This document shows, in pieces, positions 9,513 to 41,815 of a stretch of 41,815 nucleotides of DNA (positions are counted from its first letter, which is position 1; each line of letters begins with the position of its first letter). The translations under genes were made by a program, and so were the position numbers. The stretch spans positions 1-41,815 of the forward strand of contig PKTJ01000020.1 of the NCBI GenBank assembly GCA_002869205.1, given 5' to 3'. Below the pieces are notes generated by a model, which was given only the letters and a program-made list of their open reading frames with translations, was not told the DNA's origin and searched no databases. The DNA is from Candidatus Parcubacteria bacterium. GTDB lineage: Bacteria > Patescibacteriota > Patescibacteriia > Magasanikbacterales > UBA922.

Positions 9513-9863
9513 ATGAGACATAGAAAGAAAAATGTAAAATTAGGAAGAACAAAAGCACCACGAAAGGCGTTGCTTCGCAACTTGGCTGAAAGTTTGGTAT
9601 TGCATGGTGCAATTACCACAACCAAAGCAAAAGCAAAAGCATTGCGTAGTGTTGTTGAACCTTTGATTACCAAAGCAAAAAAGAATCATCCAATTGACAA
9701 AGAAAAAATCAATCAAGTTTTGTATACTGGTAAAGCACAAAAGAAACTTATTGAAGAAATCGCACCTCAATACAAAGAACGTGAAGGCGGATATACACGT
9801 ACTACCAAATTGGGTACACGTCCAAACGATGGTGCAGAAAAAGTTAAAATCGAATTAGTTTAA
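9513..9863 (+). CDS. rplQ: 50S ribosomal protein L17
   Basis: MRHRKKNVKLGRTKAPRKALLRNLAESL. Confidence 0.95.
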   Translation: MRHRKKNVKLGRTKAPRKALLRNLAESLVLHGAITTTKAKAKALRSVVEPLITKAKKNHPIDKEKINQVLYTGKAQKKLIEEIAPQYKEREGGYTRTTKLGTRPNDGAEKVKIELV

Positions 9864-9870
9864 AAATAAT

Positions 9871-9953
9871 TTTTAGATCCTGATATTCGGATAATCCAGA
9901 TTGACGGATGTAACATCTGTAAATCTGGATTATCCGGAAATCCGTATATTAAA
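9871..9953. repeat. 83-bp palindromic repeat, copy 1 (upstream of rplM)
   Basis: CGGATAATCCAGATT/AATCTGGATTATCCG stem; near-identical flanks to 10344-10426. Confidence 0.9.
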
Positions 9954-10317: not shown

Positions 10318-10343
10318 TTGATACTACAGAGTTTTAACAAATA

Positions 10344-10426
10344 TTTTAGATCCTGATATTCGGATAATCCAGATTTACAGATGTTACATCCGTCAATCTG
10401 AATTATCCGGAAATCCGTATATTAAA
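10344..10426. repeat. 83-bp palindromic repeat, copy 2 (upstream of rpsI), central core inverted
   Basis: Same flanks and arms as copy 1; central 19 nt is its exact reverse complement. Confidence 0.9.
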
Positions 10427-18893: not shown

Positions 18894-19517
18894 ATGAGCG
18901 AGATGAAGAAGGGTCTGGTCGCCGAAAACGTGGACGACCTCAGAGGTCTGCTCGAGGGCGAGAAGAAGTTCAAGCTCGTCATCGTAGAGAGAAACAAGGA
19001 GAGTGACTTCGGTGCTCTCAGCGGTCCCATCATCTTCCGGGAGGATGAGGACGGGGAGTACATGAGCGTGTTCCCGAAGCTTTCTCCGTCTCCGTTCCGA
19101 TTCCACATCGGCGAAGGACTCCTGTTCGAGGAGCAGACGGATGGAAGTCTCCACTTCACGCACACCGACTACAAGTGGCGGCTCATTCGCCTGGATGTCT
19201 CTCGGAAGGTTTCCGAGCACGACAAGGGGGTTTCCGAGCTGCTTCTTCACCGGCGGTTCCACCTCGAGGTGATCCATCAGCCCGTCGGCACCGTCGACAA
19301 GTACGACGTGAGTGGCGAAGTCTGGATCGCGGGTCAGCTGATCTCGACCCACATCTCGATCCCCACTACCGCTCATCAGATGCCCTTCGCGCTCTACCTG
19401 CGAGGGTCCGGCGAGCTCGGAGACCTCTTCTTCGAGGAGAACGAGTACGGCGGCATCACGTTCTACTACGCGAGCAAGCGGCACGTCTACGAGCTCGTTC
19501 GCGTCAACACCTACTAG
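18894..19517 (+). CDS. GC-rich orphan protein, unknown function (island 1)
   Basis: 207-aa ORF, strong G/C third-position bias unlike neighbours. Confidence 0.8.
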   Translation: MSEMKKGLVAENVDDLRGLLEGEKKFKLVIVERNKESDFGALSGPIIFREDEDGEYMSVFPKLSPSPFRFHIGEGLLFEEQTDGSLHFTHTDYKWRLIRLDVSRKVSEHDKGVSELLLHRRFHLEVIHQPVGTVDKYDVSGEVWIAGQLISTHISIPTTAHQMPFALYLRGSGELGDLFFEENEYGGITFYYASKRHVYELVRVNTY

Positions 19518-19525
19518 GGGGAGAA

Positions 19526-19549
19526 ATGAACAACATTAGAGCGCCGTGA
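19526..19549 (+). CDS. mini-ORF MNNIRAP (tail module copy A)
   Basis: GGGGGAG SD, ATGAACAACATTAGAGCGCCGTGA; matches two other mini-ORFs in window. Confidence 0.55.
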   Translation: MNNIRAP

Positions 19550-19579
19550 GGGAAGCGGCGAAAAACAAGTTCCCTTCCC
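19542..19579 (+). ncRNA. predicted H-type pseudoknot (tail module copy A)
   Basis: CGCCG/CGGCG stem; loop AGGGAA or GGGAAG pairs with TTCCCT or CTTCCC after A-rich linker. Confidence 0.6.
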
Positions 19580-19620
19580 AAATATCTTTTTTACTTAAAG
19601 TAGAAAAAATTGAGGAATAA

Positions 19621-19650
19621 AAAACCACCAAAGTAGGTGGTTTTTTATTT
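19621..19650 (+). terminator. terminator of GC-rich island 1 (may be bidirectional)
   Basis: AAAACCACC aaagta GGTGGTTTTTT. Confidence 0.8.
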
Positions 19651-24206: not shown

Positions 24207-25124
24207 ATGAGTAATGCAAGTATCGGTCAGGTGGGTGGCAAGCCCTACGTAGACAAGAAGAACGATCGGGTCAAGGGGTTCGGCGACGAGCTTCAGACCT
24301 CGATAGACATCATCGAAGCGACGCTTCGTAGAGCACTCCAATCGCTCAATGGAGAGTCGCGATTCACGATGAGGGTCCCGGTCGCACATGACATGGACCT
24401 GGATCGTGTCAGAGAGATCCGTGTCAATGGAGGGTCTGTGCGAGTGACCTGTGAAGCGATTGTGCCGATCAACAATGATCAGGTTGGTGCGATCGCGTAC
24501 TTCGGCGGCAACCGTCCTGAGCGTCAGACTGCGTATATGACGCACGTTGCTGAACAGGCGTGTCTGAATCAGGCCTTCGCTCACGAGATGCGCGAACACA
24601 CCCTCCCAGACGTCTGCGTCATCGAGTGTCACGCACCTGGCGAAGGGAACTGGAGTGACGAGGATGTGGAGGCGCTCGTGCGTATCTACGAACAGGCCTT
24701 CTCGGGCTACCTCGTCGCATTCACTCACGAATCCGTGCGTGGCATGCTCGATGGCAATCTCGTCGCAGTGGTGCGCCACAACGGCGAGATCGTCTCGGTC
24801 GTGATGGCTGAGATCGCCGAGCTCAAGACTGCTGGAGAGGTGCTTCGTCTCGCGGAGATCTCCGAGGTCGCGACCAGTCCGCAGTACCATCGTCGCGGTT
24901 TCGCGCGCATGCTCTACGGCGTGATCGTCGAACACCTGCGCCGTGCGCAGATCGAGGTCATCTTCACCGAAGCCCGTGCCAACTCGGTCGGCATCATGGT
25001 CGCCGCGAGGAGCGCCGGCCTCAAGCCACGCGGGCTGCTCGATCAGCACTGCGTCATCTCGTCTGAATTCACCGACGTCAGTCAAGACACCGAACACGGA
25101 AGTCTCTTCGTGTTCTCGCTCTAG
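24207..25124 (+). CDS. GC-rich GNAT-family acetyltransferase (island 2)
   Basis: LAEISEVATSPQYHRRGFARMLYGVIVEHLR GNAT motif A; SD GGGGGAC. Confidence 0.82.
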   Translation: MSNASIGQVGGKPYVDKKNDRVKGFGDELQTSIDIIEATLRRALQSLNGESRFTMRVPVAHDMDLDRVREIRVNGGSVRVTCEAIVPINNDQVGAIAYFGGNRPERQTAYMTHVAEQACLNQAFAHEMREHTLPDVCVIECHAPGEGNWSDEDVEALVRIYEQAFSGYLVAFTHESVRGMLDGNLVAVVRHNGEIVSVVMAEIAELKTAGEVLRLAEISEVATSPQYHRRGFARMLYGVIVEHLRRAQIEVIFTEARANSVGIMVAARSAGLKPRGLLDQHCVISSEFTDVSQDTEHGSLFVFSL

Positions 25125-26610: not shown

Positions 26611-27114
26611 GTGGGAAAGAATAGGTGGATCCTGATCGGTGTTCTTGGGATATCTGGCGTGGTCATGCTCTTTCTGGCAATTGCTATGTCAGGCGACCCT
26701 AGTCACGCGCTTCTCGCAAGATGCCGAACCCTTCTGCGAGATCAGCCGTGTAAGCGCGTTGTTGGTCTCGATCACAAAGGCGGGTGCGTCTACGGGGATG
26801 CACAGAACGGAACGGTGTGCCTTCCAGAGGGTGGGTTGTTCTGCAACCCCGTGTGTACATGTCGAGACGGCAAGCCAGTGCGTGTGATGCGCAACTGCGA
26901 TGATGGGAATCCCTGTACCAAGGATCGCTGTGAGCATAATCCTCTCGACACTGCTACTACGCCCGGACTCTCTGGTCTCCACCTCACCGCCGACATGTGC
27001 GTCCATGAGTTCCTGGAGGACTACACGCCGTGCAGCAACGAGGACTTCACCGTCCCTGGTCACTGTAAGACAGGTGAGTGCATGTTGCCAGAGATGGATC
27101 TGATTCCAGACTAA
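26611..27114 (+). CDS. GC-rich Cys-rich secreted/anchored protein (island 3)
   Basis: GTG start, N-terminal TM/signal, CDDGNPCTKDRC and further Cys pairs. Confidence 0.75.
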   Translation: MGKNRWILIGVLGISGVVMLFLAIAMSGDPSHALLARCRTLLRDQPCKRVVGLDHKGGCVYGDAQNGTVCLPEGGLFCNPVCTCRDGKPVRVMRNCDDGNPCTKDRCEHNPLDTATTPGLSGLHLTADMCVHEFLEDYTPCSNEDFTVPGHCKTGECMLPEMDLIPD

Positions 27115-32177: not shown

Positions 32178-32201
32178 ATGATTACTATTCGCGGACCGTG
32201 A
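32178..32201 (+). CDS. mini-ORF MITIRGP (tail module copy B)
   Basis: AAGGAGGA SD; ATGATTACTATTCGCGGACCGTGA. Confidence 0.55.
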   Translation: MITIRGP

Positions 32202-32228
32202 AGGGGAGCACGGTAAAAAACACCCCTT
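32195..32228 (+). ncRNA. predicted H-type pseudoknot (tail module copy B)
   Basis: ACCGTG/CACGGT stem; loop AAGGGG pairs perfectly with CCCCTT after AAAAAACA linker. Confidence 0.7.
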
Positions 32229-32265
32229 CCGATTATCATATTAAATTATTGAGATAATTGAGGAT

Positions 32266-32296
32266 AAAAAAGCCCCACAGATCTGGGGCTTTTTTA
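32266..32296 (+). terminator. terminator of GC-rich island 4
   Basis: AAAAAAGCCCC acagatct GGGGCTTTTTT. Confidence 0.88.
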
Positions 32297-37938: not shown

Positions 37939-38044
37939 GATAAAAAACCGCCCAAATCAGACGGTCTCGAGGATCGTTCCGCCTCTTCGGCGGATACAGG
38001 ATTTTATGGGGGTAGTAGGGGGATTTCCCCCTACCTATAATCCT

Positions 38045-39013
38045 CTAGAACACAAAATTAATCAAATACCCAATCATAATAATCCCCACCGTAACAATAC
38101 CAAAAAACGCAGCAAGGAGAGGTAAGCGCAGGACGCGCTTGAGGATCATGGCTTCGGGGAGTGAGAGGCCGACGATGGCCATCATAAACGCGAGGCCGGT
38201 ACCGATGGGGACACCTTTTGCAATGAGTGACTGGATGACGGGGATAGTGCCGCTTGCATTACTGTAGAGCGGGACAGCGAGGATGACGGCGAGTGGGACT
38301 GCCCAGATGCCGGCGATTTGTAAGTAGGTTTCGAAAAACCCTTGAGGTACATAGCCGTGGATGAGTGAACCGATAGCGACACCGGCGATGAGGTAGAGGG
38401 AGATTTTTTTTGTTATATCAAATGCTTCTTTTGAAACTTTGATAAGTATTTGATTGAATGTTGGTTTTTGTTTTTTGCAGCAACAACATTTCTTTTCTGC
38501 CTCGTCGAGATCTATGACATACTTTTCCATCTTGAGGCGACCGAGGATCATACCACCGATGATACCGATTGCGAGTCCTGATATGATATATACGAGTGTT
38601 ACTTTCCAGCCAAACAGTCCGATGAAGAGTGCGATGGCGATCTCATTGATGAGTGGGGAGGTGATGAGGAATGAAAACACCACGCCGAGTGGTATTCCCG
38701 CGCGAAGGAAATTGATGAAGAGCGGGATAGATGAGCAAGAGCAAAATGGGGTGAGTGCTCCGAAGAGTGATGCGATCACATGGTCGAGGCCGTAGAACTT
38801 TCTGCTCGTGAGAAACGCTTGGAATTTCTTGGTAGGTAAGTAGTGTCGTACCAGACTCATGAGGTGGGTGACGACGATGAGGAGGATGAAGATTTTGAGG
38901 AGGTCGTATATGAAAAAATTGACCGAGTGGGCGAGGGCGGTTTCGTGGGCAATATTGAATAGGTTGTAGGTGAGGTAGTCTGCGAGGGTTTGGATGGGGG
39001 AGAAAATGTCCAT
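38045..39013 (-). CDS. permease, YraQ/UPF0718-like
   Basis: 322-aa polytopic protein, FGALTPFCSCSSIPLFINFLRAGIPLGVVFSFLITSPLINE motif, CCCCKK loop. Confidence 0.85.
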   Translation of the reverse strand: MDIFSPIQTLADYLTYNLFNIAHETALAHSVNFFIYDLLKIFILLIVVTHLMSLVRHYLPTKKFQAFLTSRKFYGLDHVIASLFGALTPFCSCSSIPLFINFLRAGIPLGVVFSFLITSPLINEIAIALFIGLFGWKVTLVYIISGLAIGIIGGMILGRLKMEKYVIDLDEAEKKCCCCKKQKPTFNQILIKVSKEAFDITKKISLYLIAGVAIGSLIHGYVPQGFFETYLQIAGIWAVPLAVILAVPLYSNASGTIPVIQSLIAKGVPIGTGLAFMMAIVGLSLPEAMILKRVLRLPLLAAFFGIVTVGIIMIGYLINFVF

Positions 39014-39044
39014 ATTTTTTTTGATAGTTAACAGGGGATAGTAT

Positions 39045-39105
39045 AGCAGGAAAAAAGGTATTTGTAATTAGGCTTTTGCCTTGACAAATGCCTTTTTTTG
39101 TGATA
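39045..39105 (+). repeat. 61-bp promoter-containing direct repeat, copy 1
   Basis: Identical to 40525-40585; contains TTGACA and an inverted repeat. Confidence 0.95.
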
Positions 39106-39222
39106 TGTTATTTTATTCACACTACGTGTGGAATGTTCTTTTTGTCAGAGAAAGCGCGTCGGCAAGGTGCCGGCGTATTCGATTTTAGACCGGTTTCGTA
39201 ACCAGTAGAGGGAGATCGAACG

Positions 39223-40320
39223 ATGAGAAAACCGATGAAATTCCACGTGATCAACACGGGCGGGACGCTCGGCATGGTCGGCAAGCCGCTTGTGCCGGCG
39301 GCATCCGCTGAAGAGCTCCTCGAAGGCATCAAGGTGCCCAAGGGAGTCAAGCTGAACCTCCAGGACATGGATGAGAAGCAGGATTCCACCAACGTGTGGA
39401 ACGCGGATCGTCTGGTCATGGGTCAGATGATCGAGGCGGCGTACGAGACGCACGACGCCTTCATCGTCCTGCACGGCACGGACTCGCTTGCCGAGACCTG
39501 CTCCTACCTCTCGATGCTCTTCAAGCTGTCCCTGCAGAAGCCGGTCTTCGTGATCGGCGCGCAGATGACGAAGATCGAGGCAGGTAGCGACGTGGCGATG
39601 CAGATCGAGAACGCGCTGCGCGTTGCGAAGTCCTTCGTCAAGAACAGCATCGTCGGCGTGTACAACGTTTGCATCGGCGAGGTGCTCCACGGCGCGCGGG
39701 TGTGTAAGCGTCGCGACAGCGCCTTCGACGCCTTCCACACCCCCGGTGTGCATCCCGTCGCCCACGCCTTCCCTCACATCATGATCAAGGAGGGGGTCCG
39801 GCGCAAGGACGAGGTCACCGCGGTGCAGGGTCTGCGCCTCGATTCCAAGTTCGAGCGCCACGTGGTCTCGCTCGTCGTGTCCGCCGACGCTCCGCCCTAT
39901 GTCCTCATGGACATGGTCAAGGCCGGGCGGATTCGTGGCGTCGTACTCGAATGCAAGGGAGCGGGGAATATCCCTGACCGTCCTTGGGAAACCGAAGGTG
40001 ACGACGCCTTCTCTTGGATCGACGCGATCCGGGCCGCGACCGATGCTGGTATCCACGTGGGTATCGTCTCGCCGTTCGAGGACGGTCGAGTCATCCTCGA
40101 TCGCTACGGGCTGGGTGCCAAGGCCAAGGCCGCCGGCGCTCTCTCGCTCGAGAGCATGACGCCGCCCATGGCCGACACCAAGTTCCGGCAGGCCATCGCG
40201 ATGTTCCCGAAGGATCCGGCGCGCATCCAGCGCTTCCTCTCGGCGGACATGCTCAACGAGCTCCTCGACGGATTCGAGGATGAGAGCGACGAAGACGACG
40301 ACGAGGTCGTGAAGGACTGA
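39223..40320 (+). CDS. GC-rich asparaginase-family protein (island 5)
   Basis: NTGGTLGM and LHGTDSLAETCSYLS catalytic motifs. Confidence 0.88.
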   Translation: MRKPMKFHVINTGGTLGMVGKPLVPAASAEELLEGIKVPKGVKLNLQDMDEKQDSTNVWNADRLVMGQMIEAAYETHDAFIVLHGTDSLAETCSYLSMLFKLSLQKPVFVIGAQMTKIEAGSDVAMQIENALRVAKSFVKNSIVGVYNVCIGEVLHGARVCKRRDSAFDAFHTPGVHPVAHAFPHIMIKEGVRRKDEVTAVQGLRLDSKFERHVVSLVVSADAPPYVLMDMVKAGRIRGVVLECKGAGNIPDRPWETEGDDAFSWIDAIRAATDAGIHVGIVSPFEDGRVILDRYGLGAKAKAAGALSLESMTPPMADTKFRQAIAMFPKDPARIQRFLSADMLNELLDGFEDESDEDDDEVVKD

Positions 40321-40366
40321 TCCGATCACAGTACGGCCTCTGACGACAACATCAAGGAGAACCACG

Positions 40367-40393
40367 ATGAATACGATTCGTGCGCCCTGTTAA
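40367..40393 (+). CDS. mini-ORF MNTIRAPC (tail module copy C)
   Basis: AAGGAGA SD; ATGAATACGATTCGTGCGCCCTGTTAA. Confidence 0.55.
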   Translation: MNTIRAPC

Positions 40394-40401
40394 ATCAGGG
40401 C

Positions 40402-40433
40402 CGCTGTCCGGGGGCAGCGTTATCAAAACCCCC
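40402..40433 (+). ncRNA. predicted H-type pseudoknot (tail module copy C)
   Basis: CGCTG/CAGCG stem; loop GGGGG pairs with CCCCC after TTATCAAAA linker. Confidence 0.65.
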
Positions 40434-40473
40434 TTCGATTATCATTTTTATAACATAGAAATGATTGAGAAAT

Positions 40474-40501
40474 AAAAACTGCTTTTAAAAGCAGTTTTTA
40501 T
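40474..40501 (+). terminator. terminator of GC-rich island 5
   Basis: AAAAACTGC ttttaaaa GCAGTTTTT. Confidence 0.85.
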
Positions 40502-40524
40502 TTTGTGGATTCTAGGGGTGATAC

Positions 40525-40585
40525 AGCAGGAAAAAAGGTATTTGTAATTAGGCTTTTGCCTTGACAAATGCCTTTTTTTGTGATA
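40525..40585 (+). repeat. 61-bp promoter-containing direct repeat, copy 2
   Basis: Identical to 39045-39105. Confidence 0.95.
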
Positions 40586-40695
40586 CAGTGATCTGTCCTG
40601 TTTCTGGTGCAAAACCGCAACTGACTGTTATCGGCAGATCCCAGGGTAGGGGTTCGCTGACAGCATTGTCACGTTACTTTCGTGGAGGTTCCAAG

Positions 40696-41061
40696 ATGAA
40701 CGTCGTTCGAAACATCCTCGGTGCCCTCGTGCTCGTGCTCATCCTCGGTTCGCAGGTCGCGAACGCGCAGAAGCGTACGCTCCCCGAGACGTGCAACTGC
40801 AAGCACGCTCTGGGTATCGGCGGCGCCGACTACGACTCGGTCCTGCGCTGGGACTGCGACTTCATGATCCGAGAGCTGTGCGCGATCGGGAAGCACGAGT
40901 CCTCGTGGGCGGACTTCTCGATCGTCTGGAAGTGGCTCAAGATGCCGACCATCGAGATCTTCGCGCTCGAGGAGGCCGTCTACTACGGCTGGTGGCACAG
41001 CTGCAAGGCGGACTGCATCGAGAAGCACACGACGTGTGCGATCCCGAAGACCTGTCGCTAG
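40696..41061 (+). CDS. GC-rich secreted Cys-rich protein (island 6)
   Basis: ATG preceded by GGAGG; signal peptide MNVVRNILGALVLVLILGSQVANAQ; 8 Cys. Confidence 0.78.
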   Translation: MNVVRNILGALVLVLILGSQVANAQKRTLPETCNCKHALGIGGADYDSVLRWDCDFMIRELCAIGKHESSWADFSIVWKWLKMPTIEIFALEEAVYYGWWHSCKADCIEKHTTCAIPKTCR

Positions 41062-41201
41062 AGGTAAGACGCTCCTCCAAGAGGGGTCAGAACTCAGGAC
41101 AAAAACAGTGGCAACTCCAACGACGAGGAGTGGTCACACCAACTAGGGGGAAACCCCGAGCACAACTTCTGTCTTCGGACGTGGTGGCGCTCGGGGATGG
41201 A

Positions 41202-41235
41202 AAAAAGCAACTTATTTATGTAAGTTGTTTTTTAT
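41202..41235 (+). terminator. terminator of GC-rich island 6
   Basis: AAGCAACTTatttatgtAAGTTGTTTTTT. Confidence 0.75.
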
Positions 41236-41419
41236 TTTTAGTAAGCTTACATAACAAAAAACCACCTATTAAGATGGTCTTTTGAAGTTTGCCGCAAGGT
41301 TGCAGCAAACCCCCTTCCCGAGATGTTGCATGATCTCGGGCCCGTGTAAAAGGAACAGTGGTTCACCTCGTCTCATCTACACGATGGGTGAGAGGAGGTG
41401 TGTGGGAGCGTGACAGCTC

Positions 41420-41812
41420 CTAGCGCCTGTCGTCGTAGCGCTCGTCGCCGGTGACCGGACGTTCCTCGTTCGTAGTCCCCGAGGTCGTGTCAGGATCCTT
41501 CTTCATCATCGGACGAAGGCCGTTCAGGTGAGACAGAGAACCCTCGACGGTCTTGTGGAATTCCGTGTTACTGTGTCTGCTAAAGCACCCGAGCGCTCTT
41601 CGAAGGAGTTCCACGACTTCCTGGAACTCTTCCTTCGACCGAAAGTGGTCTGGCGAGAGCACCATCACGAGGGTCGCAGCCGTGAGCAGTCCACCAAGAC
41701 CAGTGAGGCCTACGCTTATCGGATGGGTGGGTCGAGGGATACCGGACTTCTCGACCTCCTGGAGAAGGGTGTCTCGGAGCAAGGACAGAATGATATCTAC
41801 CGCGGTCTTCAT
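41420..41812 (-). CDS. GC-rich hypothetical protein (island 7)
   Basis: 130-aa ORF, GC-rich codons, one TM-like segment; upstream region lies outside the window. Confidence 0.6.
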   Translation of the reverse strand: MKTAVDIILSLLRDTLLQEVEKSGIPRPTHPISVGLTGLGGLLTAATLVMVLSPDHFRSKEEFQEVVELLRRALGCFSRHSNTEFHKTVEGSLSHLNGLRPMMKKDPDTTSGTTNEERPVTGDERYDDRR

Positions 41813-41815
41813 GCA

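What the first reader, a model, noticed from the sequence alone, without database searches (positions are those of the whole stretch)
39045..40585. Identical 61-bp promoter repeat in front of two adjacent cassettes
agcaggaaaaaaggtatttgtaattaggcttttgccttgacaaatgcctttttttgtgata occurs at 39045-39105 (before asparaginase) and 40525-40585 (before the secreted Cys-rich gene). It contains the -35 box and an inverted repeat AAAAAAGGTATTTGT/ACAAATGCCTTTTTT. The genes behind it are unrelated, so only the 5' unit is shared: a recombination or duplication border, or a shared operator for co-regulation. Together with the shared 3' tail it brackets the asparaginase cassette (about 39045-40524).
Basis: seen in the sequence. 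Interest (0 to 1): 0.7.

Follow-up and report, generated by a model that had tools for sequence, protein, structure and literature searches.

The report
Duplicated palindromic promoter flanking asparaginase cassette
In a small-genome Magasanikbacteria bacterium, one 61-base promoter that can be read in both directions occurs twice, on either side of a foreign-looking asparaginase gene; a sister species has a single copy at that place and no such gene, which suggests the gene was gained or lost by recombination between promoter copies.

Summary
A perfect 61-bp direct repeat lies at 39045-39105 and 40525-40585, 1480 bp apart, with no other copy in the 1.06-Mb genome. The whole unit is one long imperfect palindrome. 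Its right arm is a near-consensus promoter (TTGACA-17-TATGTT or TACAGT, extended -10). At copy 1 the left arm carries a second promoter pointing at the divergent permease; at copy 2 that -10 is degraded.

The same-genus genome G001 has, at the same place, permease - one unit - Cys-rich gene, without this asparaginase. G000 flanks joined without 1480 bp align end to end with it. G001 also has a second, diverged unit in front of a different asparaginase-like cassette. Unit copies are more alike within a genome than by position (7 sites to 0).

Best reading: a lineage-specific palindromic promoter whose copies recombine, so that GC-rich cassettes are gained or lost behind it. The direction (gain in G000 or loss in G001) is open. 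A dedicated operator or site-specific recombination site has no support. Both genes belong to a distinct class of solitary GC-rich genes (GC3 0.6-0.9 in a genome at about 0.3), unexplained and arguably more interesting than the repeat.

The parts
39045..39105 (+). 61-bp palindromic promoter unit, copy 1 (between divergent permease and asparaginase)
   Evidence: exact repeat; own-genome search; covariance model hit 96.7 bits
40525..40585 (+). 61-bp palindromic promoter unit, copy 2 (before Cys-rich gene)
   Evidence: exact repeat; model hit 95.4 bits
39051..39065 (+). left arm AAAAAAGGTATTTGT of copy 1 hairpin
   Evidence: sequence; fold
39084..39098 (+). right arm ACAAATGCCTTTTTT of copy 1 hairpin; overlaps -35 and promoter spacer
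   Evidence: sequence; fold
39081..39109 (+). promoter for asparaginase: TTGACA-17-TATGTT with TG before the -10
40561..40589 (+). promoter for Cys-rich gene: TTGACA-17-TACAGT with TG before the -10
39040..39068 (-). divergent promoter toward permease: ATTACA-17-TATACT with TG before the -10; at copy 2 the matching -10 is degraded (TGTATC) and not called
   Evidence: minus-strand sequences
38045..39013 (-). ArsP_1/UPF0718-type permease, divergent from copy 1
   Evidence: Pfam PF03773 1.6e-65
39223..40320 (+). type I-like asparaginase, GC-rich (GC3 0.85)
   Evidence: Pfam PF00710 3.8e-30; TIGR00519 below its cut-off
40367..40393 (+). mini-ORF MNTIRAPC* after asparaginase (similar MNNIRAP* and MITIRGP* after two other cassettes)
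   Evidence: sequence
40428..40478 (+). conserved 3' tail hairpin ending GATTGAGAAATAAAAA
   Evidence: model R2 hit 65.9 bits; related tails in other genera
40470..40503 (+). terminator-like perfect inverted repeat after asparaginase
   Evidence: the repeat finder I6
40696..41061 (+). secreted-looking Cys-rich protein, genus-specific, GC3 0.92
   Evidence: no Pfam or NCBIfam match; orthologue in G001, 73% identity
41168..41234 (+). conserved GC-rich hairpin plus terminator-like hairpin after the Cys-rich gene
   Evidence: fold z -5.2; 93% identical in G001

Best explanation
The unit is a native promoter in palindromic form: two near-copies of the lineage's promoter placed back to back, each arm holding a -35 and a T-rich spacer, with the -10s at the outer edges. 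At copy 1 both arms are used (permease leftward, asparaginase rightward); at copy 2 only the right arm looks functional (Cys-rich gene). The two copies are the two sides of a recombination event. In one species the interval is permease - unit - Cys-rich gene; in the other an asparaginase cassette lies between two units, as a single crossover within the shared unit would leave it on insertion, or remove it on loss. Shown: the repeat, the palindrome, promoter consensus, filled/empty pair, within-genome similarity. Inferred: promoter activity, crossover mechanism, homogenisation by gene conversion. Not resolved: whether G000 gained or G001 lost the cassette.
For: Exact repeat found only twice in the genome. 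Three of the five promoter-like sites called in 38000-41815 are these arms. Extended -10 promoters of this type are enriched in the genome, 54 against about 9 expected. G000 flanks joined without 1480 bp align end to end with G001's permease-to-Cys interval. Copy 1's left flank and copy 2's right flank match G001's unit A, while the two inner flanks do not, as a single crossover predicts. Seven sites group the units by genome and none by position. No unit of comparable score in 76 other relatives; permease orthologues elsewhere lack it.
Against: Only one sister genome is held, so insertion and deletion cannot be told apart, and homogenisation cannot be separated from independent duplications. 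Part of the matched arm change could be template-switch repair of a quasi-palindrome, and the pair-count control is not significant on four sequences (105 of 500 shuffles reach the covariation score). No expression data. G001's unit B lies near a contig end.
Confidence: 0.65

Rival explanations
1. Terminator-promoter composite: the hairpin and T-run stop transcripts arriving from upstream, while the right arm and T-run serve as -35 and spacer of the next promoter, so each cassette is insulated.
For: Strong hairpin followed by seven T; similar composites in G044 and G011, where TTGACA sits in a hairpin whose T-run is the promoter spacer; in G001 unit B directly follows the Cys-rich terminator.
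Against: Copy 1 has no upstream gene on the + strand to terminate; copy 2 already follows a perfect terminator-like hairpin at 40470-40503; among 54 extended promoters in the genome only these two have the full hairpin.
Confidence: 0.25
2. Operator: the palindrome binds a dimeric regulator that controls permease, asparaginase and Cys-rich gene together.
For: Dyad symmetry kept in both species despite sequence change; exact identity of the two copies.
Against: No regulator gene adjacent; each arm is explained by promoter consensus; no unit at other loci or in other genera.
Confidence: 0.15
3. The unit is a hairpin recombination site for a cassette system (integron-like) and is acted on by a dedicated recombinase.
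For: Hairpin borders a cassette that differs between species; cassettes of foreign composition; two tyrosine-recombinase-family matches in the genome.
Against: No attC boxes (no GTT or AAC in the 61 bp); only two copies, at one locus; the other GC-rich cassettes lack the unit; the G000-G001 comparison at two other cassette sites shows ordinary gene turnover.
Confidence: 0.06
4. History is the reverse: the two-cassette array is ancestral and G001 lost the asparaginase by crossover between two units, rather than G000 gaining it.
For: Equally compatible with the flank pattern; G001 still carries a second unit with another asparaginase-like gene.
Against: The G001 gene is not an orthologue: BLASTP alignment over 42 residues only, and the G000 asparaginase has no match in G001.
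Confidence: 0.35
5. Assembly artefact: the repeat was created by misjoining.
For: Fragmented assembly in 67 contigs with a gap just past the window end.
Against: The sister genome independently has two units at this locus with different sequence; flanks are in orthologous positions.
Confidence: 0.03

Closest known systems
Bacterial bidirectional promoters (Grainger group; PMC10268837)
   Same: Symmetrical DNA drives transcription both ways.
   Different: There the -10 elements overlap and starts lie 7-25 bp apart; here two promoters stand back to back, with predicted starts about 80 bp apart.
Ordinary divergent (back-to-back) sigma-70 promoters between head-to-head genes
   Same: Copy 1 is exactly this arrangement.
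   Different: The two arms are near-copies forming a 61-bp palindrome, and the unit is duplicated.
Campbell-type integration or excision between short homologous repeats (general knowledge)
   Same: Filled/empty site with the repeat duplicated around the insert.
   Different: The homology is a short promoter; no vector, phage or plasmid genes inside.
Integron gene cassettes with attC hairpins
   Same: Single-gene cassettes and a hairpin at the border.
   Different: No attC boxes; the unit carries the promoter and lies before the gene.
Phage 'morons' (single genes with own promoter and terminator and odd base composition; from general knowledge)
   Same: Autonomous single-gene units with own promoter and terminator and foreign composition.
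   Different: Chromosomal, in a Magasanikbacteria genome; tail and unit patterns have no match in IMG/VR.

Membership tests
sigma-70-type promoter | -35 and -10 hexamers at 16-18 bp spacing, optional TG before -10 | tested here: met
   right arms of both copies, and left arm of copy 1 only
sigma-70-type promoter | transcription start downstream of the -10 | not testable with these tools
   no RNA data
Bidirectional promoter as defined in PMC10268837 | divergent starts 7-25 bp apart with overlapping -10 elements | tested here: not met
   -10s at 39104-39109 (+) and 39040-39045 (-) do not overlap (definition)
Integron attC site | RYYYAAC / GTTRRRY boxes at hairpin ends | tested here: not met
   no GTT or AAC in the 61 bp (sequence printed)
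Integron | IntI-type integrase linked to a cassette array | tested here: inconclusive
   two Phage_integrase (PF00589) matches in the genome, neither on this contig; type not determined
Intrinsic terminator | stable hairpin followed by a T-run | tested here: met
   fold -28.1 kcal/mol as RNA and T7 run; not listed by the pattern scan, which allows loops of 3-8 only; termination itself not tested
Transposon target-site duplication | direct repeat flanking an element with transposase or terminal inverted repeats | tested here: not met
   only an asparaginase gene between the repeats; the repeat is a pre-existing promoter, present singly at that place in G001

The most novel reading that the evidence does not exclude
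Magasanikbacteria carry a lineage-specific system of exchangeable GC-rich single-gene cassettes (native AT-rich promoter units, conserved structured 3' tails, mini-ORF MNxIRAP) that move between loci and species by recombination at shared 5' or 3' units and keep a GC3 of 0.6-0.9 in a genome with GC3 of about 0.3.
Probability: 0.2. Interest if true: 0.8.

Novelty: new variant of a known kind. Interest (0 to 1): 0.45.

Why it matters
It gives a concrete filled/empty site showing how a solitary GC-rich gene sits behind a promoter of a streamlined Patescibacteria genome, with the promoter itself as the likely crossover homology. It also leads to a class of GC-rich single-gene cassettes with conserved 3' tails across Magasanikbacteria genera, whose persistence at high GC3 is unexplained and which I did not find described in the open-access library searched.

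Tried and rejected
attC/integron reading (no boxes). Virus-borne unit or tail: no match in IMG/VR. Rfam: nothing near a gathering score in 38900-41400. A genome-wide promoter-terminator composite class: not supported, only the two unit copies qualify strongly among 54 promoters. Ancestral operator at the permease: orthologues in eight other relatives inspected have no such unit. Two other cassette sites compared with G001 show different AT-rich genes at those places, i.e. general gene turnover and not a unit-linked process. Literature searches on Patescibacteria gene cassettes, promoter motifs, Magasanikbacteria and GC content gave nothing relevant.

Full report
What is there. The window is contig 11 of a 1.06-Mb, 67-contig genome with about 38% GC. 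The host is best placed in Candidatus Magasanikbacteria: a 3'-tail pattern from this locus hits only four named genomes of GTDB, all Magasanikbacteria. The 61-bp sequence at 39045-39105 and 40525-40585 is identical in all 61 positions and the copies are 1480 bp apart. Searches of the genome with the sequence and with a covariance model find no further full copy. Two partial matches (L003, L004) are ordinary promoters with the same -35/spacer wording.

Anatomy. The whole unit is one imperfect palindrome, TATAGCAGG-AAAAAAGGTATTTGT-...-ACAAATGCCTTTTTT-TGTGATA, with an inner AGGC-TTTT-GCCT (DNA z -6.3). The right arm is a promoter: TTGACA, 17 bp, TATGTT or TACAGT, with TG before the -10. The left arm read on the minus strand is a second one, ATTACA-17-TATACT, pointing at the permease; at copy 2 this -10 reads TGTATC and is no longer called. 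Extended -10 promoters of this wording occur 54 times in the 510 kb examined, against about 9 in random sequence of the same dinucleotide make-up, so the right arm follows the lineage's normal promoter style.

Sister species. G001, the only other genome of the genus among those searched, has on contig 52 (read toward its start): permease, unit A, Cys-rich gene, terminator, unit B, and an asparaginase-like gene cut by the contig end. Cutting 1480 bp from G000 and joining the flanks gives a sequence that aligns end to end with G001's permease-to-Cys interval. G000 and G001 are thus a filled and an empty site for this asparaginase. G001's asparaginase-like gene is another gene: it aligns with G000's over 42 residues only, and G000's has no match in G001. 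The left flank of copy 1 and the right flank of copy 2 match unit A; the inner flanks do not. A single crossover within the unit produces exactly this.

Homogenisation. Aligning the four units, seven sites group them by genome and none by position; G000's copies differ at 0, G001's at 7, and between genomes at 10-12 of 62 columns. Either copies are kept alike within a genome by gene conversion, or duplications happened separately. The arms changed together between species (GGTATTTGT/ACAAATGCC against GAGCATTTGT/ACAAATGCTC), but with four sequences the pair-count control is not significant, and quasi-palindrome repair would do the same without selection.

The cassettes. Both genes behind the units are GC-rich: GC3 0.85 and 0.92, against 0.21-0.36 for the neighbouring host genes sampled. 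GC3 over 411 ORFs is bimodal: most at 0.15-0.40, about 33 at 0.55 or more. The latter are mostly solitary and often unknown, usually with AT-rich promoters and 3' hairpins. The asparaginase has GC-rich relatives in other AT-rich Magasanikbacteria at other loci (69-73% identity; GC3 0.88-0.89 in 32-37% GC surroundings). A structured 3' tail (TATCNTTTTTA...TAGAAATGATTGAGGAATAAAAA) follows the asparaginase, two other cassettes in this window and GC-rich genes in several other genera. In G000 all three copies are preceded by a mini-ORF MNTIRAPC, MNNIRAP or MITIRGP.

Judgement. The repeat is real and most likely a duplicated palindromic promoter that acts as homology for gain or loss of a cassette. 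Promoter function rests on consensus only; the mechanism is inferred from flanks; the direction is open. Terminator and operator roles may coexist and were not testable. As a kind it is a variant of known things; the surrounding class of GC-rich cassettes is the part that deserves follow-up.

Noticed in passing
whole genome G000 (512 kb read); window 18894-19517, 24207-25124, 26611-27114, 39223-40320, 40696-41061, 41420-41812: Bimodal GC3: about 33 of 411 ORFs at 0.55-0.92 while nearly all others are 0.15-0.40; the GC-rich ones are mostly solitary, largely unknown genes.
   Followed up: partly
window 19571-19623, 32221-32271, 40428-40478; L119-L123, L137: Conserved structured 3' tail (hairpin then GATTGAGGAATAAAAA and terminator), often behind GC-rich genes, in several Magasanikbacteria genera.
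   Followed up: partly
window 40367-40393, 19526-19549, 32178-32201: Mini-ORFs MNTIRAPC, MNNIRAP, MITIRGP with a purine-rich stretch before the start, just upstream of the shared tail.
   Followed up: no
window 40586-40700 and 41130-41240: The leader (84%) and 3' hairpin (93%) of the Cys-rich gene are strongly conserved at DNA level with G001, although the protein is 73% identical.
   Followed up: partly
window 38045-39013; L018 1286-2254: The permease is also GC-shifted (GC3 0.60 in G000, 0.74 in G001), more so in the sister species.
   Followed up: no
L032 around 1815 (contig position about 41815): A single N flanked by the repeated word cttcatgca marks an assembly gap just past the window end.
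   Followed up: no
window 9857-9953 and 10330-10426: A 97-bp pair of hairpin repeats (89% identical) at 9857 and 10330, flanking a region with a 138-aa ORF on the list.
   Followed up: no
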